NCBI RefSeq assembly: GCF_024105655.1
Contig: NZ_JAAAMH010000005.1
Coordinates: 186,001 to 250,000, forward strand
Source of the DNA: Aliihoeflea sp. 40Bstr573
GTDB lineage: Bacteria > Pseudomonadota > Alphaproteobacteria > Rhizobiales > Rhizobiaceae
Reading direction: 5' to 3'
Length of the DNA stretch: 64,000 nt
The stretch's first letter is position 1; each line of letters starts with the position of its first letter. Below, piece after piece: positions 17,142-53,650 of the stretch. A program made the translations under genes and the position numbers. Under the pieces are notes generated by a model, which was given only the letters and a program-made list of their open reading frames with translations, had not been told where the DNA came from and ran no database searches.

Positions 17142-18133
17142 AGCGGCGGCAGCGTCCCGAGCTTCAGGAAGCCGATCGAGACATCGCCCTTGGATATGCG
17201 CATGGGCAGCGTCGGGTTGTCGCCCAGCATCGAAACGCCCGCGAAGGCGAGCCGGATCTGGTCACGGGCGGCCGGGAACAACTCGGCCATGATCTGCGCA
17301 AAGACCTGCGGATTTTCCACGGAAAGGGACAGTTCCGCATCGATCAGGCCCGCTTCGTCGATCGAGAATGGTCCTTCGACGCGCGCGGCGGTCTCGTCGC
17401 CTGCGGTGCGGATCACCATCGAATTGACGACCATGGCCAGACCGCGCAATCCCTGGCCGGAGAAGGCCGGCGCCGGATCGACGGGGAAATGCAGGTCGGC
17501 CTCGCCGCTGAGCAGCGGCAACGTGCCGTCGCCCAGAAGATCCGGGTCGAGCGACAGGCGCTCGAACCGCCAGGCGACGTCCGAGCCTGGGCCGGACGGA
17601 CGCATGTGGAATTCGGCGCTTTGCGCCGATGCGGCCGGGCGCTCGCCGGCCGGGGCGGAATCGGGACCGACCGCGATGCCGGTTGCCTCGACGGAGAGGA
17701 TGTCCGGCCGCGGCGAGGCGAGACGTGAACTGGCCCGCAATGCGTCCCAGGTCACCTCGAGCGCATTGATGCCCGGGAATTCGACGATCGCCGGACCCTC
17801 GAGTTCGCCGACAACGCGCTGCGGCTGGTAGACCTGTGCGGCCGAACGGAACGCGCCTGCGCGCACCGCGACGCCCGAGGGTGCGTCGACATACATGATC
17901 GAGCGGCAAAAGAGCCCGATGCGGAAGGGATAGCCACGCGCTTCGGCGTTCTCGCAATTCGCCCTGCGCCCGCTCGCGTTGAGCGCTGCAACGCGCGCAT
18001 TCGCCTCCCCCACCAGCCGGTGGGCGGCATAGTTCCAGCCAAAGGTGTAGCCTACGATGGCAACGCCGATCGCAAGTGCGAGGAGAAGGATGCGGCGGGT
18101 GTAGCCCGATCCGCCGGATTTTCTTGACGCCAT
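17138..18133 (-). CDS. DUF2125-family membrane-anchored protein
   Basis: Conserved alphaproteobacterial protein of unknown function, 331 residues. One N-terminal membrane segment (about residues 14-34, ILLLALAIGVAIVGYTFGWNY) is followed by a large periplasmic domain. That domain is rich in beta strands, with the CENAEARGYPFRIGLFC segment carrying two cysteines that may pair. The repeated 'level' architecture resembles AsmA/YhdP-like envelope proteins, but I would not go beyond DUF2125. ATG start at 18133. Its 3' end overlaps tyrA by 4 bases. Confidence 0.85.
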   Translation of the reverse strand: MASRKSGGSGYTRRILLLALAIGVAIVGYTFGWNYAAHRLVGEANARVAALNASGRRANCENAEARGYPFRIGLFCRSIMYVDAPSGVAVRAGAFRSAAQVYQPQRVVGELEGPAIVEFPGINALEVTWDALRASSRLASPRPDILSVEATGIAVGPDSAPAGERPAASAQSAEFHMRPSGPGSDVAWRFERLSLDPDLLGDGTLPLLSGEADLHFPVDPAPAFSGQGLRGLAMVVNSMVIRTAGDETAARVEGPFSIDEAGLIDAELSLSVENPQVFAQIMAELFPAARDQIRLAFAGVSMLGDNPTLPMRISKGDVSIGFLKLGTLPPL

Positions 18134-18197
18134 GCCCCGTGCCTCGCTACCCCGGTTCGGCCGAACTGACCGGCAAGCGAACTAAACTGACGGCGAT

Positions 18198-18713
18198 ATG
18201 GGCGATTTTTGGGTCTTTGGCTATGGCTCCCTGATGTGGCGGCCGGGCTTTGCGCATACGGAAACGCATCGCGCGCGACTTCACGGCTACCGCCGGGCGC
18301 TGTGCGTGCGTTCATTCGTGCATCGCGGCACGGAGGCGCGGCCGGGGCTCGTCCTCGGGCTCGACCGGGGCGGCTCTTGCATCGGAATGGCGTTTCGCGT
18401 GCCGGACGCGCTGCGCGACGAGGTGGTCGACTATCTGCGCGAGCGTGAACTCGTCACCAACGTCTATCTGGAACGGCGCCTGCCGGTCAGGCTCGAAGGC
18501 GGCCCGGTCGTGGAAGCGGTGACCTATGTCGTCGACCGCGCCCATCAGCAATATGCCGGCCGGATGGACGCGGAGGATGCGGCGCGCGCAGTCAACGGCG
18601 CGGTCGGCCAGTCGGGACCGAACGAGGAATACGTCCTCAACACCGTCGCCCATCTCGAAGCGCTCGGCATTCGCGACCACTGGCTCGAAAGCGTGGCAGC
18701 GAAGATCAGCTAG
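18198..18713 (+). CDS. Gamma-glutamylcyclotransferase, ChaC-like
   Basis: Predicted enzyme that releases 5-oxoproline from glutathione or other gamma-glutamyl compounds, 171 residues. It starts with the hallmark FGYGSLMWRPGF (residues 7-18), the substrate-binding loop of the ChaC/GGCT fold. YVVDRAHQQYAG and GQSGPNEEYVLNT near the end match ChaC family members. ChaC-type enzymes usually prefer glutathione, so a role in glutathione turnover is likely but not proven. The 3' end overlaps the convergent plsC gene by 8 bases. Confidence 0.88.
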   Translation: MGDFWVFGYGSLMWRPGFAHTETHRARLHGYRRALCVRSFVHRGTEARPGLVLGLDRGGSCIGMAFRVPDALRDEVVDYLRERELVTNVYLERRLPVRLEGGPVVEAVTYVVDRAHQQYAGRMDAEDAARAVNGAVGQSGPNEEYVLNTVAHLEALGIRDHWLESVAAKIS

Positions 18714-19524
18714 CCTTGCGCGGCGCAGGCTCGACGCCGAGCGCCTTCAGCCGATCGAGCGCGGTCGGCGGCAAGGGCGGGCCCGCCGGATTCCGCGCGA
18801 CCTCGACCAGCAACTCGTCGCACGCCTGTTCCGTTTCGCGGACCAGGCGCTCGAGAAAAACCTGCTTGTCCAGCCCCGGCTCGATCGGAGGCAGGAACTT
18901 CGCGTGGATCGTACCGGGATAGCGCAGGAACTTGCGACGCGGCCAGTAGAGCCCGGCGACATGCGCGACGGGAACGACGGGAACATTGAGCGAGGCATAG
19001 AGCTCAGCGATGCCGTATTTGTAGGCCGGTTCCGCTCCGGGCGGACGGCGCGTGCCTTCGGGATAGATGATCAACTGGCGGCCCTCCGCCATGCGCTCGC
19101 GCGCCACCCTCACAGCCTGCTTCAGCGCCTTGGAGCGGCTGCCGCGGTGGATCGGGATCATCTTCATCTTGGCGATATACCAGCCGAACAGGGGAATCCA
19201 CATCAGCTCGCGCTTCAGGATGTAGACCGGGTCCGGCATGTAGGGGAAAAACGCGATCGTGTCCCAGAAGGACTGGTGCTTGGGCGCCAGGATGTAGCCG
19301 CCTTCAGGCAGGTTCTCGAGGCCTTCGATCTTCCGGTCGGTGCCTGCGATAACCTTCATCAGCCACATGCTCGAGTGCGACCAGTTTCGCGGCACGAACC
19401 AGGCGAGACGGCGCGGCAGGATGAAATAGATCGGCGTAAAGACGATCATCTGGACGATCAGGCTCGCATAGAAGGCCACGTTGAAGGCCAGCGAACGAAT
19501 TTGCAGCATGAGGCGGGCTCGCAT
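18706..19524 (-). CDS. plsC: 1-acyl-sn-glycerol-3-phosphate acyltransferase
   Basis: Acylates lysophosphatidic acid to phosphatidic acid in membrane lipid synthesis. 272 residues with an N-terminal membrane anchor (about 12-38). Motif I HQSFWD (His83, Asp88) is the catalytic HX4D, the motif around IHRGSR serves for substrate binding, and IIYPEGTRRPPG is motif III. ATG 19524 and an ATG 5 codons later are both possible; neither has a clear SD. Other PLSC-family acyltransferases are possible alternatives. It lies 49 bases downstream of the YdcF-family gene on the same strand. Confidence 0.88.
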   Translation of the reverse strand: MRARLMLQIRSLAFNVAFYASLIVQMIVFTPIYFILPRRLAWFVPRNWSHSSMWLMKVIAGTDRKIEGLENLPEGGYILAPKHQSFWDTIAFFPYMPDPVYILKRELMWIPLFGWYIAKMKMIPIHRGSRSKALKQAVRVARERMAEGRQLIIYPEGTRRPPGAEPAYKYGIAELYASLNVPVVPVAHVAGLYWPRRKFLRYPGTIHAKFLPPIEPGLDKQVFLERLVRETEQACDELLVEVARNPAGPPLPPTALDRLKALGVEPAPRKAS

Positions 19525-19573: not shown

Positions 19574-20290
19574 CTATCGCTCGACCGGGCCGCTGCCTGC
19601 GCCTGCCTCGACGATCACCGCCGGAACGTCGCCCGAGCGCGACGGCATCACCGTGGTGCGGGCGAGGGCAGCGAGGTATTTCGTGTATTCGGTGAAGAGT
19701 ACGCGCAGCGCATTGCGGCTTGCCAGCCATTGGCCGCCGTCCAGCCGGTTCGTGACGACGGGGTAGGGCGTCAGGCGGGCGTTCTGAAGCGCGTGGCTCA
19801 TTTCCAGAAGGCTGCGCGGCATGTGGTAGTTGTTGGTCACCACGATTGCGCTGCGGAAGGCGTTCTGCTCCAGCCATTTGGCGCTTTCGGCGGCGTTGCC
19901 GATCGTGTCGAGCGCATCGCGGTCGATGTCGACACAGCAGGCGAAGAGGTCTTCGTTGGCGCCGGTGGCGCGCTGGATGTCGAGCGGTCGGGCGACCGGA
20001 TTGACGCCGGAAATCAGAAGCCGCTGGCCGCGTCCTTCCTGCAGGAGCTGGACGGCCGCGTCGAGCCGCGCAACGCCGCCGGTCAGGACGATGATCGCAT
20101 CGGCGCTGCCGGGGTCAATTGGCGTCTGCAGGCGGCCGACATGGGTGGCAAAGACCAGGAAGCCGCCGGCGAAGACGAAGCCGAGGCACAGGACCACGAT
20201 GATTCCGGCGCGAACGATCGCCGGCAGGCCCCGCCTTCCGACTTCGCGCTCAAATCCTCGCGCGCTCGTTCTTCGCATGTTCTTCAGCAC
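19574..20290 (-). CDS. YdcF-family (DUF218) membrane protein
   Basis: Single-pass protein with a DUF218 domain, 238 residues if GTG 20290 is used, or 234 from ATG 20278. The membrane segment lies at about residues 27-50, then the DUF218 fold begins with ADAIIVLTGGVARLDAA. Typical later motifs are LLISGVNP, TIGNAAESAKWL and VVTNNYHMPRSLLEMSHAL. The family includes ElyC/SanA, linked to envelope synthesis; the reaction is not established. It lies between ftsX (95-base gap) and plsC, on the same strand, and may extend an envelope operon. Confidence 0.87.
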   Translation of the reverse strand: MLKNMRRTSARGFEREVGRRGLPAIVRAGIIVVLCLGFVFAGGFLVFATHVGRLQTPIDPGSADAIIVLTGGVARLDAAVQLLQEGRGQRLLISGVNPVARPLDIQRATGANEDLFACCVDIDRDALDTIGNAAESAKWLEQNAFRSAIVVTNNYHMPRSLLEMSHALQNARLTPYPVVTNRLDGGQWLASRNALRVLFTEYTKYLAALARTTVMPSRSGDVPAVIVEAGAGSGPVER

Positions 20291-20385
20291 CAGATAATGT
20301 CGCCCATCGTTACGCGCCGAAGGGACCCAAGGGTAGTGCCTTTAAACGCAAGATCACACAAAGGTTTCCAACCGCATGCCGCCGC

Positions 20386-21348
20386 TTAGTCGTGCTGGCG
20401 CCCGTCGAGTTCGGATAGATAGGCGGCAACGGTGAAATGGGTCGTTGCGCCGGTCAGGATCGTTACGGTCGCGGCGACGAGCGCGACGCCCAGATAGCCG
20501 GTCAGCCCGATGGCGAAATTGCCGAAAAGCGCGGCGGCCTGATCGCCCTGCGGCGTCGCCAGATTGGCGGAGGACCAGATGGAGAAGCCGACAAAGACGA
20601 TGATGGCGGCGGCCCCGCCGATCGCTGCCCCTTTCAGCCCCGTCACGAGGAAATGGCGACGGAACTCCCGTGCGATGAAGCGGGCTTCGGCCCCGACGAA
20701 ATGCAGCACCTCGATGATGTGGCCGTTGCCGTCCATCGCGCCGCGCGTGGCGAAAACGACGGTCAGAACCGTCGCCGCCAGCATCAGGCCCAGGATCGCG
20801 ATGCCGATTGCGACGGTCGTGCGGGCCATGGCAACCAGGCGGTCGGCCCAGGTGCGATGGTCGTCGAGGGCTGCGCCGGGGACTTGCTCTGCCAGAAGCG
20901 TTCGCATGGTGGCGAAATCGGGCGGCGACGTCGGATCGATGGTCACGATCACGAGGCGCGGAACGGGCAGTTCGTCGAGATCGAGACCGGAGCCGAGCCA
21001 CGGCTCGAGAAGGCGGGCCGTCGCATCCTCATCGAGGATCGAGGCGCTGCGCACGCCGGCAAAGCCGGCAGCGAGCCCCTGCGCCGCGACAAGCGCGGAA
21101 TCCATGTCGACGCCGTCGGCCGGTTTGATCTGGATGGTCGCCTCGCGGGAGATCTCCGTCTGCCAGGCGGCAGACGAATCGCGCACCAGCGTAACGGCGC
21201 CGAGCGTCAGGCAGGAGAGGAACGTCATGATCGCGATGACGACCACGAGCGCTGTGCCGGCGACGTTCTGCGCCGGGACGATCGGCGTCGGCGCGCGCCG
21301 GAGGGAGCGCGCGGCCATGACGGGGGCGCGTTCGGCGATCTCAGTCAT
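20386..21348 (-). CDS. ftsX: Cell-division ABC transporter permease FtsX
   Basis: Membrane half of the FtsEX complex, which controls peptidoglycan hydrolases during division. 320 residues. One N-terminal membrane segment (about 29-53) is followed by an extracytoplasmic domain (about 60-165). Three more membrane segments at about 175-200, 230-255 and 280-305 complete the four-pass FtsX topology. In many alphaproteobacteria FtsX is divergent, and here too similarity is mainly in overall layout. Its ATG lies inside the end of ftsE (8-base overlap). Confidence 0.88.
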   Translation of the reverse strand: MTEIAERAPVMAARSLRRAPTPIVPAQNVAGTALVVVIAIMTFLSCLTLGAVTLVRDSSAAWQTEISREATIQIKPADGVDMDSALVAAQGLAAGFAGVRSASILDEDATARLLEPWLGSGLDLDELPVPRLVIVTIDPTSPPDFATMRTLLAEQVPGAALDDHRTWADRLVAMARTTVAIGIAILGLMLAATVLTVVFATRGAMDGNGHIIEVLHFVGAEARFIAREFRRHFLVTGLKGAAIGGAAAIIVFVGFSIWSSANLATPQGDQAAALFGNFAIGLTGYLGVALVAATVTILTGATTHFTVAAYLSELDGRQHD

Positions 21349-47787: not shown

Positions 47788-47872
47788 GCCCCTGTGGCGG
47801 AATTGGTAGACGCGCTCGACTCAAAATCGAGTTCCGCAAGGAGTGCTGGTTCGATCCCGGCCAGGGGCACCA
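47788..47872 (+). tRNA. tRNA-Leu (CAA)
   Basis: 85 bases with an encoded CCA end. The acceptor stem GCCCCTG / CAGGGGC is perfect. The anticodon stem CTCGA/TCGAG encloses CTCAAAA, giving anticodon CAA for the UUG codon. The long variable arm expected of tRNA-Leu follows (TTCCGCAAGGAG), and the T arm contains GGTTCGATCC. Flanked by its own promoter upstream. Confidence 0.95.
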
Positions 47873-47912: not shown

Positions 47913-48698
47913 TCAGCCGGCGGTGAGCGGCTGCGCCTCGGACAGGTAGCCTGCGACCACCGAAGGTATCTGGGCTGAAGCCCAATCGTAGGTGCCGCAG
48001 CTTCCAAGGAGTTTTCGCAAGTCTGGATGGGTGCCGTCGAAACGCCAGATCATACGCGATGCGTAGGGCTGGTTGTCCTTGCGCCAGGAGATGCCCATGG
48101 TGAGCCCGCGCAGATAAAGACGCTGATGGATTTCGAGCGGCAGCATGATCGTCTGCCCGAAAGTCGGCGCATCGCCGCGGGTGCGCTCCGTCACGAAGAT
48201 CCGACCGCGGCGATAGGCGGCCAGACCATCGTAGCGCGACCGCTGCCGGATGCCGCTTGCCGCGTCCTCGATCCGCTCCAGCGACGTCACCGCGACCTTG
48301 CCCTCGTGTTCGCGCAAATGGGTGCACGAGCAGACGACCTGGCCCGGCCACGAAAGCGAGACGTGCCAGGTCTGGTAGAAGCCGAGATATCTGCGCAGTT
48401 CGGCAATGTCGCCGGGAAACGCGTCGTCGAGCGGTGGCGCAGGCGCAGCGGTGGCCACCCGGCGTCTGGCCATGACAGCCCTGAATTCTTCTGGACCCCG
48501 CTCGAAATCGACCGGATCGAGTTCGAACGCATGCGCGATTCTTGCAAGATTGTAGGGCGAGGGGCGAGACTGTCCGGAAATGTAGCGGTTGAACTGCTGG
48601 CGATTGAAGCCGTGCGTGCGGCAGAAGTGGGAGACGGACGGCATCGTGGCGCAGGCCTGGCGCAGGTTCAGGGCGAGCACTGTCGTATCGATTGGCAT
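47913..48698 (-). CDS. XRE-type HTH transcriptional regulator with unknown C-terminal domain
   Basis: 261 residues from ATG 48698 (a GTG lies one codon upstream). The N-terminal helix-turn-helix (about residues 18-62, VSHFCRTHGFNRQQFNRYISGQSRPSPYNLARIAHAF) is of the XRE/Cro type. The C-terminal 170 residues (YLGFYQTWHVSLSWPGQVVCSCTHL onward) are beta-rich and may sense a ligand; I do not recognise the family. It diverges from the binding-protein / hydrolase pair (110 bases between starts), suggesting it controls it. Its 3' end lies 40 bases from the tRNA-Leu gene. Confidence 0.75.
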   Translation of the reverse strand: MPIDTTVLALNLRQACATMPSVSHFCRTHGFNRQQFNRYISGQSRPSPYNLARIAHAFELDPVDFERGPEEFRAVMARRRVATAAPAPPLDDAFPGDIAELRRYLGFYQTWHVSLSWPGQVVCSCTHLREHEGKVAVTSLERIEDAASGIRQRSRYDGLAAYRRGRIFVTERTRGDAPTFGQTIMLPLEIHQRLYLRGLTMGISWRKDNQPYASRMIWRFDGTHPDLRKLLGSCGTYDWASAQIPSVVAGYLSEAQPLTAG

Positions 48699-48807
48699 CA
48701 CGGTAGCGTAAAGTAGCTCAAGTCCGCGTCAAGGCGCGAAATTGTCTTGCTCGATCGTTTCTCCAAGAATGCCCCCATCTCAGCATCGACCCGGAAGGAT
48801 TATCGCC

Positions 48808-50382
48808 ATGACGCTCGACCTGTCCAAGAGACGCGCTCCGTTCAAGCTCGATCGCCGCGGCTTTCTCCATGGCAGCGCGCTGGTCGGCATTGCCGCCGTG
48901 TCCGGCATTCTTGGCGGTCCGGCAAGCGCGCAGGAACCCAAGCGCGGCGGGACGCTGCGGCTGGGTCTTGATGGCGGGTCGACGGCCGATACGCTCGATC
49001 CGGCTATTGCCGCCGCCACCTTCGCATTCGTCCTGTGCCACTGTTGGGGCGACACGCTGGTCGAATCCCATCCCGAGACGGGCGAGGCGCTTCCATCGCT
49101 TGCGAAATCCTGGGACGTCTCCGATGACGGTATCACCTGGACGTTCCAGATACGCGAGGGGGTCGAGTTCCATGACGGCAAGCCGCTGACCGTCGACGAT
49201 GTCGTCGAGACCCTGCGGCGCCACGCCGACGAAGGCTCGCAGTCCGGCGCGCTCGGGCTCATCGGCGATATCGAGCGCATCGAGGGCGAAGGAAACGAAC
49301 TCGTCATCACCTTGAGCGAACCGAATGCCGATTTGCCGCTGGTCCTGACCGACTATCACCTGCAAATCCAGCCCGGCGGCGGGCGCGACGACCCCAATGC
49401 CGCGATCGGCACCGGCCCCTTCAAGCTGACCAACTTCACGCCGGGCGTGCGCGCGACTTTCGAGAAGAACGCCAATGACTGGCGCGACGACCGCGGTTTC
49501 GTCGATGCCGTCGAAATCACCGTCATGAACGATGCCACGGCCCGCAACAGCGCGCTTACCTCCGGCCAGGTCGATCTGATCAACACGGTCGACCCCAATA
49601 CGGCAACGTTTCTGGGACGCGCGCCGAATGTCGAGATCCTGCGCACCGCCGGCAAGGGGTTCTATTCCTTCCTGATGCATTGCGATACGGCGCCCTTCGA
49701 CAACAACGAGCTGCGCCTCGCCCTCAAATACGCGATCGACCGCGAAGCGATCCTGCGGCAGGTCGTCGGCGGCTTCGGCACCATCGGCAACGATTATCCG
49801 GTCAACGAGAACTACGCGCTCGCACCGACCGATATCGAGCAGCGCGTCTACGATCCGGAAAAGGCGGCCTTCCATTTCAGGCAGTCCGGCCATGAAGGGC
49901 CGATCCTGCTGCGCACGTCCGAGGCCGCGTTCCCCGGCGCGGTCGAGGCCGCACAGCTATTCCAGCAAAGCGCGGCGGCGGCCGACATTCCTCTGCAGGT
50001 GCAGCGCGAGCCTGATGACGGCTACTGGTCCGAGGTCTGGAACGTCCAGCCCTTCTGCGCTTCCTATTGGGGCGGTCGCCCGACGCAGGACGCGCGTTAC
50101 ATGACCTCCTACGTGTCCAACGCTGAATGGAACGACACGCGGTTCAAGCGGCCCGAATTCGACAGGATGGTACGCGAGGCGCGCGCCGAACTCGACGAGG
50201 ATCGCCGCCGGGCCCTCTATCGGGAGATGGCGCTCATGATTCACAATGAGGGCGGGGCGATCATCCCGGTCTTCAACGACTATGTGAATGCCGCGGGCAA
50301 GCATGTGCGCAACTACGTTCACGACATCGGCAACGACCTTTGCAACGGACGTGTCGCAAGCGTGGTCTGGCTCGACGCCTGA
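48808..50382 (+). CDS. ABC transporter substrate-binding protein, family 5 (peptide type), Tat-exported
   Basis: Periplasmic binding protein of the DppA/OppA family, 524 residues from ATG 48808 with GGAAGGATT upstream. Twin-arginine signal: DRRGFLHG with Arg16-Arg17, cleavage likely after ASA (residue 41). SBP_bac_5 fold: KRGGTLRLGLDGGST, ESWDVSDDGITWTFQIREGVEFHDGKPLTVDDVVETLRRH and GTGPFKLTNF. No permease or ATPase gene lies nearby, so it either works with an unlinked transporter or has another role. The next gene encodes a CocE/NonD hydrolase. Ligand unknown (peptides, opines, nickel and sugars are all known for the family). Confidence 0.88.
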   Translation: MTLDLSKRRAPFKLDRRGFLHGSALVGIAAVSGILGGPASAQEPKRGGTLRLGLDGGSTADTLDPAIAAATFAFVLCHCWGDTLVESHPETGEALPSLAKSWDVSDDGITWTFQIREGVEFHDGKPLTVDDVVETLRRHADEGSQSGALGLIGDIERIEGEGNELVITLSEPNADLPLVLTDYHLQIQPGGGRDDPNAAIGTGPFKLTNFTPGVRATFEKNANDWRDDRGFVDAVEITVMNDATARNSALTSGQVDLINTVDPNTATFLGRAPNVEILRTAGKGFYSFLMHCDTAPFDNNELRLALKYAIDREAILRQVVGGFGTIGNDYPVNENYALAPTDIEQRVYDPEKAAFHFRQSGHEGPILLRTSEAAFPGAVEAAQLFQQSAAAADIPLQVQREPDDGYWSEVWNVQPFCASYWGGRPTQDARYMTSYVSNAEWNDTRFKRPEFDRMVREARAELDEDRRRALYREMALMIHNEGGAIIPVFNDYVNAAGKHVRNYVHDIGNDLCNGRVASVVWLDA

Positions 50383-50467
50383 TCCGTCACCCAAGACGAA
50401 ACCGTCAGCCTGCGCGGACGTGATCCGCGCAGGGCTTCCTGCCGCATTGCCCATCGAGGCCAGCAAA

Positions 50468-52462
50468 ATGACAGAACGCAACTTCACCGTCATCGAGAAC
50501 GAATGGATCTACCTGAAGGACGGCACCCGCCTTGCGGCGCGCATCTGGATGCCGGACGACGCCACGAGCGCGCCCGTTCCCGCGGTGCTGGAATTCCTGC
50601 CCTATCGAAAGCGGATCGGCACGGCGCCGCGCGATGAATCCACCTATCCGGTCTTTGCTGCGGCCGGCATTGCCGGCGTGCGCGTCGACATTCGCGGCTC
50701 GGGCGAATCCGACGGTGTCATCGACGGGGAATACACGCCTCTCGAATTGGCCAATGCCTTGGAACTGATCGAGTGGATCGCGTCGCAGCCATGGTCGAAT
50801 GGCAGCGTCGGCATGATGGGGATTTCATGGGGCGGGTTCAACTGCCTGCAGGTCGCGGCGCTGAAACCGCCTGCGCTCAAGGCGGTCATCTCGATCGCCT
50901 CGACCGTCGATCGCTACAATGACGACATCCACTACAAGAACGGAACGCAGCTCGCCGCTCAACTTTCCTGGGCGGGCACGATGCTGGCCTATCAGTCCCG
51001 ATCTCCAGATCCCGCGGTCGTCGGCGAACGATGGAAGGAGATGTGGCTCGAAAGGCTGGAGAACGAGCCGTTCTTCATGGAGGACTGGCTGTCCCATCAG
51101 CGTCGCGACGACTTCTGGCGGCATGGTTCCATTTGCGAAGATTTCGACAGCTTCCCCGTTCCCGCGCTCGTCATCGCCGGTTGGGCGGACGGCTATCGCA
51201 ACACGCCCCTGAAGGCCGTCGAGGGAATGCCCGGCAAAGCAAAGGCGCTGATCGGTCCCTGGGTCCACAAATATCCCCATTTCGCCTACCCCAAGCCGCG
51301 CGCCGATTTCCATGGCGAGGCGATCGCCTGGTGGAATCGCTGGCTTCGCGATGGCGGTGATGCGGCGGAAGAAACGCCGCAGGTCCGCGCGTTCATTCTC
51401 GACGGCCCGCGACCGGCATTGTGGCGCGAAAGCGATCCGGGCTACTGGGTTGCAAAGGATCGGTGGGCAGCACCCGCCATGCTCGAACTGCAACTAGACG
51501 AGGCGCATCGGCTGGTGGCCAGCCCGCAGCAGCGGGCTGCAGGGCGCGCGCTCTTGCGCTCGCCGCTCGACACAGGCACGGCAGCCGGCGAGTGGTTCAC
51601 GAGCAGCCCCGATGCGGAACTGGCGGGCGATCAGCGCACCGACGATGCCGGGTCCCTCGTTGTCGAAGGCGATGTTCTGGACGACGAACTCGTCATTCTC
51701 GGCCGCCCGGTCCTGCGTATCCGGCTGGCAAGCGACAGCCCGCTCGCAAACCTCGCCGTCCGTCTGGTCGACGTTCATCCGGACGGCACGGCAACGCGCG
51801 TTTCGTACGGCGTGCTCAATCTGGCGCATCGCAATGGCAATGCGCAGCCAGAACCGCTGACGCCCGGCGAAGACCATGCGTGTGCGGTCGAACTCGATGC
51901 GTGCGGCTACCGGTTCGCACCCGGCCACCGCATCCGCCTGTCGATCTCGACCGCCTACTGGCCGACCATTTTGCCGCCGCCCTTCGATGCGAAACTCGAC
52001 ATCGATCTGTCCGCGCTTGCGTTTTCCCTGCCGCTCATCGGCGCGCATGAGCGGATCGATCTTCCGGCGCCGCCGAATCCCGACCCGCTGCCGAAATACG
52101 AGCCGGTGTCGCCTGGCGAATCCAGACGGTGGGTGGAGCGCGATCTCCAGAACGGCGTCACGCGTTATCGCATCGTCGATGATGGCGGCCTCAACCGTCA
52201 CCCCAAAAACGGACTCGCCTCGCGCGACCGCCGGGACGAAACATGGACGATCGCCGCGAACGATCCCTTGTCGATGACCGGCGAAACACGCTGGACCTGC
52301 GTTCTGTCCCGCGAAGGATGGGAGACGGTGACGCACTGCGTGTCGACTATTGCCTGCGACGAAGGGCACTGGCTGATCAGCGACAGCGTCGATGCCTCCC
52401 ACGATGGCGAGACGGTGTTTTCGCGCCGCCGGGAGCGTCGAATTCCCCGCGACCACATGTAG
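50468..52462 (+). CDS. CocE/NonD-family hydrolase (S15 acyl-peptidase/esterase)
   Basis: Predicted serine hydrolase of 664 residues from ATG 50468 (MTERNFTVIENEWIYLKDGTRLAARIWMP). The alpha/beta-hydrolase domain has nucleophile Ser120 in MGISWGGF, with the Asp in the VIAGWADGYRNTPLKA region and His in PWVHKYPHFAYPK. The C-terminal X-Pro dipeptidyl-peptidase-like jelly roll starts about residue 320 (residues ADLEWFTS to the SGYRFAPGHRIRLSIST region). Family members cleave esters, cocaine, glutaryl-7-ACA or X-Pro dipeptides. No signal peptide, so it acts in the cytoplasm. It follows the peptide-type binding protein by 85 bases. Confidence 0.87.
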   Translation: MTERNFTVIENEWIYLKDGTRLAARIWMPDDATSAPVPAVLEFLPYRKRIGTAPRDESTYPVFAAAGIAGVRVDIRGSGESDGVIDGEYTPLELANALELIEWIASQPWSNGSVGMMGISWGGFNCLQVAALKPPALKAVISIASTVDRYNDDIHYKNGTQLAAQLSWAGTMLAYQSRSPDPAVVGERWKEMWLERLENEPFFMEDWLSHQRRDDFWRHGSICEDFDSFPVPALVIAGWADGYRNTPLKAVEGMPGKAKALIGPWVHKYPHFAYPKPRADFHGEAIAWWNRWLRDGGDAAEETPQVRAFILDGPRPALWRESDPGYWVAKDRWAAPAMLELQLDEAHRLVASPQQRAAGRALLRSPLDTGTAAGEWFTSSPDAELAGDQRTDDAGSLVVEGDVLDDELVILGRPVLRIRLASDSPLANLAVRLVDVHPDGTATRVSYGVLNLAHRNGNAQPEPLTPGEDHACAVELDACGYRFAPGHRIRLSISTAYWPTILPPPFDAKLDIDLSALAFSLPLIGAHERIDLPAPPNPDPLPKYEPVSPGESRRWVERDLQNGVTRYRIVDDGGLNRHPKNGLASRDRRDETWTIAANDPLSMTGETRWTCVLSREGWETVTHCVSTIACDEGHWLISDSVDASHDGETVFSRRRERRIPRDHM

Positions 52463-52666
52463 GAAAACCGCCGCGCCGGGCATGTGCGGTGGTGCTCGCT
52501 TGTCGCGCCACCGCTTCAAATCCGTTCCGGGTGCATTTTGCCCTACAACTGGGCGCTCAAGCATGTGAGAAAGAGCAAGTCACCCGCCGTCGTATCGACA
52601 GCGCGGCGGATGACGGTCCGATGCTGCGCTTTGCAGCCCTATCCCGATCCGTTGGAGAGTTGTCCG

Positions 52667-53650
52667 TTGATAAAGCGTAGTCTTGGCAGAGATGGTCCTG
52701 AAATTGGCGCAGTCGGACTGGGCTGCATGAGCTTCGGCGGCATTTACGGGGCGACTGACATGGCCGAGAGCCACCGCACGCTCGCCCGAGCTCTCGATCT
52801 TGGCGTCGACCATCTCGACACAGCGAACATCTACGGCGAAGGCGTTGCCGAGGAAGTGATCGGCGCGTTCATCAAGGATCATCCGAACCGCTTCACCATC
52901 GCCACCAAGGCGGGAATCAAGAACCGGCCGGTGCGCGGCTTCGACAATTCGCCCGAGCATCTGCGCTCTTCGCTCGAAGCCTCGCTGAAGCGCCTTGGCG
53001 TCGACCATGTCGCGCTGTTCTACGTCCATCGGCGCGAGCAGTCGCGGCCGATCGAGGACGTGATGGAGACGCTCGTCCGCCTGAAAGACGAAGGCAAGAT
53101 CGGTGCGATCGGCCTGTCGGAGATCGCGCCGTCGACGCTGGAACGCGCCAGTGCCGTTCATCACGTGGCCGCCGTCCAGAACGAGTATTCGCTGTGGACA
53201 CGGCTTCCCGAGCTTGGCCTTTTGCAGGCGACGAAACGTCTGGGCACAGCGCTGGTCGCGTTCTCTCCCGTCGGCCGAGGCGTATTTTCCTCACCTGCCG
53301 TCGATCCCTCGAAATTTCGGGAGGGCGACTTCCGACGCCTCAACCCGCGCTTCATCGAGCCGAATTTCGGCTACAACAGCGCCTATATCGCCAGGTTCGC
53401 GGAGTTTGCGAAAGCGCGCGGCCTCTCGCCGGCGACGCTCGCCATCGCCTGGACCCTGGCGCGGGGGGACCACGTCATCCCGATTCCCGGAACGCGCAGC
53501 GCCGCGCATCTGGAAGAAGACGCCGCCGCGGCGGACGTCGTGCTCTCACCTGCGGACCTCGAGGCTATCGAGACGATCCTGCCGGTCGGCTTCGCGCATG
53601 GCGACCGCTACTCGGAGACCCAGGCCGTCGGCCCGGAGCGCTATTGCTAG
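52667..53650 (+). CDS. Aldo/keto reductase
   Basis: NAD(P)H-dependent oxidoreductase of 327 residues. I choose TTG 52667 (reading MIKRSLGRDGPEIGAVGLGCM) because GGAG lies 9 bases upstream; the frame to 52484 would add 61 residues without family match. TIM barrel with catalytic tetrad Asp51 (HLDTANIYG), Tyr56, Lys81 (ATKAG) and His121 (FYVHRRE). The C-terminal phosphate-binding loop IPIPGTRSAAHLEED favours NADP. Substrate unknown; resembles the YakC/AKR13 branch. It may belong to the upstream hydrolase gene cluster, although a 204-base gap separates them. Its stop lies 5 bases from the convergent small membrane-protein gene. Confidence 0.9.
   Translation: MIKRSLGRDGPEIGAVGLGCMSFGGIYGATDMAESHRTLARALDLGVDHLDTANIYGEGVAEEVIGAFIKDHPNRFTIATKAGIKNRPVRGFDNSPEHLRSSLEASLKRLGVDHVALFYVHRREQSRPIEDVMETLVRLKDEGKIGAIGLSEIAPSTLERASAVHHVAAVQNEYSLWTRLPELGLLQATKRLGTALVAFSPVGRGVFSSPAVDPSKFREGDFRRLNPRFIEPNFGYNSAYIARFAEFAKARGLSPATLAIAWTLARGDHVIPIPGTRSAAHLEEDAAAADVVLSPADLEAIETILPVGFAHGDRYSETQAVGPERYC

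What the first reader, a model, noticed from the sequence alone, without database searches (positions are those of the whole stretch)
47913..53650. Regulator / orphan Tat binding protein / CocE hydrolase cluster
A HTH regulator with an unrecognised 170-residue C-terminal domain diverges from a Tat-exported peptide-type binding protein and a cytoplasmic CocE/NonD hydrolase; an aldo/keto reductase follows. No permease or ATPase is present. The set could capture and hydrolyse a specific acylated compound (peptide, ester or lactone), with the regulator sensing it. I cannot name the substrate.
Basis: inference. Interest (0 to 1): 0.55.

Follow-up and report, generated by a model that had tools for sequence, protein, structure and literature searches.

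The report
Orphan receptor–hydrolase module borrowing a permease
A small, conserved three-gene unit in soil bacteria – a dedicated switch, a receptor that seems to borrow another transporter's channel, and an enzyme that cuts its cargo – probably lets them eat esters of betaines such as carnitine, though the cargo has not been proved.

Summary
In detail: a helix-turn-helix regulator (REG, 47913-48701 -), a Tat-type SBP_bac_5 receptor (48808-50382 +) and a cytoplasmic CocE/NonD hydrolase (50468-52462 +), no permease beside them. REG-receptor-CocE is a conserved unit; the aldo/keto reductase is not. REG's C-terminal domain has no Pfam match. New: a 39-bp array of four direct repeats at a 10-bp period (48706-48744), whose last TTG fits the -35 of the receptor promoter; it is conserved across families, recovered in 12 of 12 further close loci (not in 3 distant ones), and the only such site (up to 3 mismatches) in the 4.2-Mb genome. 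Relatives carry receptor and CocE in complete ABC operons; all 12 permease-less genomes tested hold one close PermB/fused-ATPase module elsewhere (own genome: contig 23), so the receptor probably borrows that permease. In Rhizobium and Sinorhizobium (7 of 15 plasmid loci read) the trio abuts the carnitine catabolic operon and its transporter, which locus order matches to S. meliloti Prb (proline betaine). Best reading: induced uptake and cytoplasmic hydrolysis of a betaine/carnitine ester. The substrate is inferred; five of six sampled genomes with a complete REG operon lack carnitine genes, which counts against carnitine itself.

The parts
47913..48701 (-). REG: XRE-type helix-turn-helix regulator with an undescribed, probably beta-rich C-terminal domain
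48706..48744 (+). Predicted REG operator: three GCGTAAANNN-like repeats plus GCGAAATTG at a 10-bp period
48742..48770 (+). Possible receptor promoter: -35 TTGTCT (48742-48747), 17-bp spacer, -10 AAGAAT (48765-48770); the -35 TTG is the end of the last repeat
   Evidence: by comparison of 18 loci; the -10 is poorly conserved; not tested
48808..50382 (+). Orphan Tat-type SBP_bac_5 receptor (SBP_A); twin arginines are residues 16-17
50468..52462 (+). Cytoplasmic CocE/NonD (S15 family) hydrolase; predicted triad S120, D241, H267 and oxyanion Y46

Best explanation
The trio is an induced uptake-and-hydrolysis unit. The Tat-exported receptor SBP_A captures an ester (less likely an amide) of a betaine-type compound, most likely an acylated carnitine or a related quaternary-ammonium ester. 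SBP_A docks on the non-adjacent Prb-like permease PermB/PermC with its fused ATPase (own genome G000:C23:17248-20684), which also serves its own receptor. CocE hydrolyses the imported ester in the cytoplasm, and the freed betaine can enter carnitine catabolism (genes present on contig 23). REG binds the four-repeat array beside the -35 of the SBP_A promoter and switches the pair on (activator more likely than repressor) in response to the substrate or its product. Shown: gene conservation, catalytic residues, conservation of the array, presence of the module. Inferred: REG binding, docking, substrate, sign of regulation.
For: (1) REG lies within 10 kb of CocE in 13 of 18 sampled genomes that have both (REG list = the 28 strongest places). 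(2) Complete operon REG<>SBP-PermB-PermC-ATPase-CocE in L082, L084-L088, L228. (3) PermB 61-78% and ATPase 66-78% identical elsewhere in 12 of 12 permease-less genomes; next best PermB 49% or less. (4) Relatives with three receptors around one permease module: L160, L161, L167; two in L170, L172-L175. In P. aeruginosa DppA5 is unlinked and about 50% identical to its fellows (PMC4206461, passages); SBP_A is 54% identical to the contig-23 receptor. (5) ATPase family within 15 kb of carnitine dehydrogenase in 8 of 34 genomes with both, 4 families, about 0.2 expected. (6) In 7 of 15 plasmid loci read the trio abuts the transporter-plus-carnitine operon. (7) That transporter matches SMc01642-44, described as proline-betaine transport / PrbA (PMC3596328, PMC4941405, passages): SMc01639 is an acyl-CoA dehydrogenase (PMC12542648, passage), which is the same distance from the receptor as in L217. 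(8) S/D/H and Y46 invariant in 39 of 39 CocE rows, window included. (9) Array results. (10) dN/dS of the receptor 0.03-0.07, lowest of the three genes in 3 of 4 pairs and 0.069 vs 0.065 (REG) in the fourth.
Against: Five of six order-sample genomes with a complete REG operon (G271, G239, G219, G273, G175) have no carnitine dehydrogenase, no carnitine-type acyl-CoA dehydrogenase and no close BKACE at the thresholds used; G260 (complete, no REG) and G041 and G081 (REG beside CocE) have no BKACE or acyl-CoA dehydrogenase hit either. REG is near carnitine dehydrogenase in 0 of 11 sampled genomes with both. Module B of the window's genome adjoins ureide genes as well as carnitine genes. L228 is a complete operon with no carnitine genes in the stretch read. 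No binding, transport or hydrolysis was measured. The receptor fold failed (pLDDT 46), so its pocket was not examined. The Prb match rests on locus numbers and gene order, not sequence. L081 and L224 have REG and receptor but no CocE beside them.
Confidence: 0.5

Rival explanations
1. Same architecture, but the substrate is a peptide, acyl-amino acid or other amide; CocE acts as an amidase/peptidase.
For: CocE belongs to the S15/PepX family. Distant REG relatives stand beside a C69 dipeptidase and ArgE/DapE deacylase (L231) or an amidohydrolase and an M81 metallopeptidase (L229, L230). Five complete REG operons are in genomes without carnitine genes.
Against: In Rhizobium/Sinorhizobium the trio abuts the carnitine operon (7 of 15 loci) and the permease family is linked to carnitine genes in several families.
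Confidence: 0.27
2. SBP_A docks on another Opp/Dpp-type permease of the genome, not on the contig-23 module.
For: The genome has 15 SBP_bac_5 matches and three further PermB relatives at E<=1e-40.
Against: Those are only 33-35% identical to the PermB of the complete operon, against 62% for the contig-23 one; the close module is present in 12 of 12 permease-less genomes.
Confidence: 0.13
3. SBP_A no longer serves transport: it is a periplasmic sensor or scavenger, and CocE acts on an internally made ester.
For: No permease is encoded beside it in the permease-less form.
Against: The receptor is under strong purifying selection (dN/dS 0.03-0.07) and belongs to a clade that also holds receptors of complete transporters.
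Confidence: 0.1

Closest known systems
Prb, Opp-like proline-betaine ABC transporter of Sinorhizobium meliloti (SMc01642-44, PrbA)
   Same: By locus order, the module beside the trio in S. meliloti matches this transporter: SBP_bac_5 receptor, two permeases, fused ATPase. Module B of the window's genome is its relative. 'Opp-like' is recalled.
   Different: The window has only a receptor paralogue with a hydrolase and its own regulator, no permease. Sequence identity to SMc01642 was not tested.
Pseudomonas aeruginosa caiX-cdhCAB-hocS with divergent cdhR, using CbcWV
   Same: Works alike: a receptor without its own permease uses a shared transporter; an acylcarnitine hydrolase and a divergent regulator are linked (PMC5806209, passages).
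   Different: Different parts: the regulator is REG (XRE type), the hydrolase is CocE type and the receptor is SBP_bac_5; the carnitine enzymes are on another contig in the window's genome. That CaiX, HocS and CdhR belong to other families is recalled.
P. aeruginosa DppA1-A5 sharing DppBCDF
   Same: Several SBP_bac_5-type receptors, one of them unlinked, serve one permease (PMC4206461, passages).
   Different: Dipeptides; no REG or linked hydrolase is mentioned in what I read.
Cocaine esterase (CocE, PDB 1ju3 and others)
   Same: Same family; nucleophile and downstream motifs align.
   Different: The window protein is about 80 residues longer, mostly at the C-terminus; its substrate is unknown.

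Membership tests
CocE/NonD hydrolase (TIGR00976) | Score above the curated cut-off | tested here: met
   222.3 vs 66.3 bits
CocE/NonD hydrolase (TIGR00976) | Ser-Asp-His triad and oxyanion Tyr (roles in CocE recalled) | tested here: met
   S120, D241, H267, Y46 in 39 of 39 rows; alignment to CocE
SBP_bac_5 receptor of Opp/Dpp type | Score above the Pfam cut-off | tested here: met
   248 vs 32.4 bits
Complete Opp/Dpp/Prb-type ABC importer | Linked permeases and ATPase | tested here: not met
   None beside the receptor; one non-adjacent candidate set
Prb (proline betaine) | Sequence orthology to SMc01642 and following, and betaine binding | not tested
   No Prb sequence at hand; locus order and papers only
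Tat substrate | Twin-arginine signal | tested here: inconclusive
   16.3 vs 16.7 bits; RR invariant in 11 of 11
XRE (Cro/C1) regulator | HTH domain | tested here: met
   Window protein is below Pfam cut-offs (HTH_3 16.7 vs 23), but 21 of 22 members match HTH_26 at E<=0.05 and the model's N-terminus aligns to HTH repressors, Z up to 10.4
XRE (Cro/C1) regulator | Dimers on palindromic motifs (said of the family in the abstract of PMC12565409, listing) | tested here: inconclusive
   The conserved site is a direct-repeat array; binding not measured

The most novel reading that the evidence does not exclude
REG founds a family of one-component regulators (XRE-type HTH plus a beta-barrel ligand domain) that bind four head-to-tail 10-bp repeats against the -35 and each control a 'receptor plus hydrolase' unit; here the unit is a betaine/carnitine-ester scavenger whose receptor has lost its own permease and lives on a shared Prb-like one.
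Probability: 0.33. Interest if true: 0.7.

Novelty: new variant of a known kind. Interest (0 to 1): 0.55.

Why it matters
It gives testable partners and a ligand class to an orphan receptor and to a CocE-type hydrolase, both members of large families with few known substrates (recalled); it names an operator and a regulator family with an undescribed sensor domain; and it suggests how rhizobia and relatives could use acylated betaines from plants or urine (inference). Carnitine-type amines do show up as reporter metabolites of R. leguminosarum in the rhizosphere (PMC8751395, passage).

Tried and rejected
Aldo/keto reductase as part of the unit: rejected; next to CocE in 0 of the 10 other permease-less loci, although a distant reductase (28-30%) is convergent to CocE in 3 of 6 complete operons (L084-L086). 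Receptor fold from 11 sequences: pLDDT 46, not used. REG fold: pLDDT 67.6, pTM 0.50; Foldseek gave nothing at E<=0.001; the VIA rows that cover residues 98-245 were designed beta barrels and quinohemoprotein amine dehydrogenases, Z 7.6-8.7, so a small beta barrel is only a lead. Link of REG to carnitine genes in the order sample: not found (0 of 11); found only in Rhizobium/Sinorhizobium plasmid records. A short two-repeat pattern near distant REG relatives: 4 near vs 8 elsewhere, p=6e-5, but in only 4 of 24 loci, two of them close kin. The array in the most distant REG loci L229-L231: best 17.1 bits, none convincing. Papers: searches showed no description of this unit in their listings (top rows only; one search looked for the DppA precedent). 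PMC8407117 and PMC12143400 were looked into by passage and gave nothing of use.
Full report
OBSERVATION. The four genes are present as described. A tRNA-Leu lies just beyond REG. The receptor is an SBP_bac_5 protein with a twin-arginine leader slightly under the model's cut-off; the pair RR is invariant in 11 of 11 aligned sequences. CocE starts directly with the family's N-terminus and shows no signal peptide by eye, so an ester from outside would need an importer. The reductase is a normal aldo/keto reductase starting 204 bp after CocE (TTG start; 264 bp if an ATG is taken). It is next to CocE in none of the 10 other permease-less loci examined; in 3 of 6 complete operons (L084-L086, one genus) a distant reductase, 28-30% identical, is convergent to CocE.

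A CONSERVED TRIO. REG was sought in 297 genomes of the order: 49 have a match at E<=0.001. CocE at E<=1e-100 is in 55 of 297. Taking the 28 strongest REG places, 18 genomes have both and 13 have them within 10 kb (about 0.1 expected for a 4.8-Mb genome). The permease-less trio is in the window, L069, L070, L072-L078 and L083. L071 ends just after the receptor and cannot be judged; L081 has REG and receptor without CocE. Between close relatives (four pairs) the receptor has dN/dS 0.03-0.07, CocE 0.11-0.14, REG 0.07-0.14: nothing looks like decay, and the 'orphan' receptor is among the most constrained.

WHERE THE PERMEASE WENT. In L082 and L084-L088 the same genes form a complete divergent operon: REG <> SBP, PermB, PermC, fused ATPase, CocE; L107-L110 have it with no REG match in the 19-kb stretch. 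The PermB of L082 was searched in 18 genomes and its ATPase in the same 18. All 12 genomes with the permease-less form (G000, G229, G248, G265, G281 and G297-G303; G229 without CocE beside it) hold one non-adjacent module at 61-78% (PermB) and 66-78% (ATPase); their next PermB is at most 49%. In G281 the module is about 42 kb away on the same contig, with a receptor and the start of a CocE of its own (L163); in G297 it is also on the trio's contig, far away. In the window's genome it is on contig 23: ATPase 17248-18870, PermB 19734-20684, next to its own receptor (L008; 54% identical to SBP_A). L160, L161 and L167 have three receptors around one such module, L170 and L172-L175 two, so sharing is plausible within this family. 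Receptor trees put the window in a clade of 12 permease-less rows (100/100, 69 rows; 100/99, 57 rows, being a part of the 69 chosen by me plus plasmid rows) inside a REG-linked clade (100/98, 19 rows; 95/90, 29 rows) that also holds the complete operons. One search warns of a long branch (L179) at the root, which does not bear on these clades. The simplest history is loss of a linked permease where a close module existed; the direction was not tested formally.

WHAT IT MAY IMPORT. Neighbours of the module were called with a simple codon-score gene finder and compared with a panel. In G281 (L163) one strand carries BKACE, carnitine 3-dehydrogenase (933 bits, cut-off 592), acyl-CoA dehydrogenase, CoA ligase, a hydratase whose best model is crotonobetainyl-CoA hydratase (302 bits, below its cut-off of 500), receptor, PermB, PermC, ATPase and the start of CocE. 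Similar linkage appears in L108, L164, L176-L180 and L191. Order-wide, the ATPase (53 of 297 genomes, E<=1e-180) and carnitine dehydrogenase (55 of 297, E<=1e-90) co-occur in 34 and lie within 15 kb in 8, from 4 families; ATPase and CocE co-occur in 44 and lie within 15 kb in 22, from 9 families. An Abhydrolase_3 esterase (EST14) recurs at these loci. Module B of the window's genome also adjoins a ureide-degradation operon (L159; (S)-ureidoglycine aminohydrolase and ureidoglycolate lyase were identified in the homologous L166), so more than one ligand is likely for that module.

The strongest link came from plasmid records: 139 of 72,556 match REG; I read 15 of the 139. In 7 of 15 (L217, L219-L223, L225; Rhizobium and Sinorhizobium) the order is EST14, CocE, SBP_A, REG, ATPase, PermC, PermB, second receptor, hydratase, CoA ligase, acyl-CoA dehydrogenase, and where the stretch reaches, carnitine dehydrogenase and BKACE (in L221 and L225 one further gene lies between REG and the ATPase; L217 and L220 have genes in pieces). 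L218, L226 and L227 have the trio elsewhere (the L218 receptor is in two frames), L224 lacks CocE, L228 is a complete operon with no carnitine genes in the stretch, and L229-L231 are distant REG loci with other hydrolases. In S. meliloti the neighbouring transporter matches SMc01642 and following: two papers call these proline-betaine transport and PrbA (passages), and SMc01639 is an acyl-CoA dehydrogenase (passage), three loci before, as in L217. The original Prb paper was not held and is recalled. The P. aeruginosa caiX-cdhCAB-hocS operon with CbcWV is a working analogue (passages).

AGAINST CARNITINE. Of six order-sample genomes with a complete REG operon, five have no carnitine dehydrogenase or carnitine-type acyl-CoA dehydrogenase hit, and no close BKACE (G271 has one at 41%, the other four none); G237 has all three. 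G260 (complete operon without REG) and G041 and G081 (REG beside CocE) have neither BKACE nor acyl-CoA dehydrogenase hits. In contrast 12 of 12 permease-less genomes have BKACE at 72-100% and 10 of 12 the acyl-CoA dehydrogenase (not G298, G303). REG was never near carnitine dehydrogenase in the order sample (0 of 11). So 'betaine-type ester' is safer than 'acylcarnitine', and a peptide or amide is not excluded.

THE SWITCH. The REG-receptor gaps of 18 loci share a 39-bp array, GCGTAAANNN three times then GCGAAATTG, at an exact 10-bp period. In the window it is 48706-48744, 4 bp from the REG start codon. A matrix from the 18 sites, run over all DNA then held (2.46 Mb with overlaps), gave 48 hits above 14 bits, by my count 27 distinct places: the 18 training sites, one close relative (L085), seven beside distant REG relatives (L089, L090, L091, L096, L097, L099, L101; 14.8-34.6 bits) and one upstream of CocE in L093, 2 kb from its REG. 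Trained on the five complete-operon sites alone, it ranks the window site first (32.0 bits, next 15.1, 127,924 positions). It is found in 12 of 12 further loci L217-L228 (40-58 bits) and not convincingly in L229-L231. Allowing three mismatches the genome has one site, a reversed control none. The last TTG is followed 17 bp on by ATTATC in 6 of 18 loci and by other A/T-rich hexamers in some (window AAGAAT), but not in all. The array therefore probably abuts the -35: an activator's place, although a repressor could also sit there. XRE proteins are described as dimers on palindromes (PMC12565409, abstract in the listing), so direct repeats would be unusual. In the window protein no Pfam match covers the C-terminal domain; among 22 members only HTH-type families and a weak HmuI/NUMOD-like match (2 members, E 0.015) appeared, with positions shown for the first member only.

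MECHANISM AND CATALYSIS. CocE keeps S120, D241, H267 and Y46 in 39 of 39 rows, window included, aligned with cocaine esterase (residue roles recalled). Proposed flow: SBP_A binds the ester, docks on the Prb-like permease of contig 23, CocE cuts the ester inside, the betaine goes to catabolism or osmoprotection, and REG responds to ester or product. Only the genetics is shown; REG binding, docking, ligand and sign of control are inferred.

Noticed in passing
window 47788-47872: tRNA-Leu(CAA) directly beyond the end of REG.
   Followed up: no
L229, L230, L231: Distant REG relatives stand divergent to other hydrolase-plus-importer units: CocE with amidohydrolase and M81 metallopeptidase (Ruegeria, Leisingera), C69 dipeptidase with ArgE-type deacylase (S. 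meliloti pSymA).
   Followed up: partly
L160, L161, L167: Three SBP_bac_5 receptors flank one PermB/PermC/ATPase module beside ureide genes and some carnitine-type genes.
   Followed up: partly
L159 (G000:C23:9001-29000): In the window's own genome a ureide-degradation operon, an Opp-type transporter and a carnitine-type catabolic cluster lie side by side.
   Followed up: partly
L084, L085, L086: A distant aldo/keto reductase (28-30% identical to the window's) is convergent to CocE in these three loci of one genus.
   Followed up: partly
L106, L114, L115, L117: Distant REG relatives share four further neighbour families that by eye look like aspartate/asparagine metabolism genes.
   Followed up: no
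L217 (CP090106.1): The record is titled pSymB but is 3.72 Mb long, which looks like a chromosome mislabelled (inference).
   Followed up: no
L218 7296-8742: The receptor of Shinella sp. HZN7 aligns in two pieces in different frames; decay or sequencing error not told apart.
   Followed up: no
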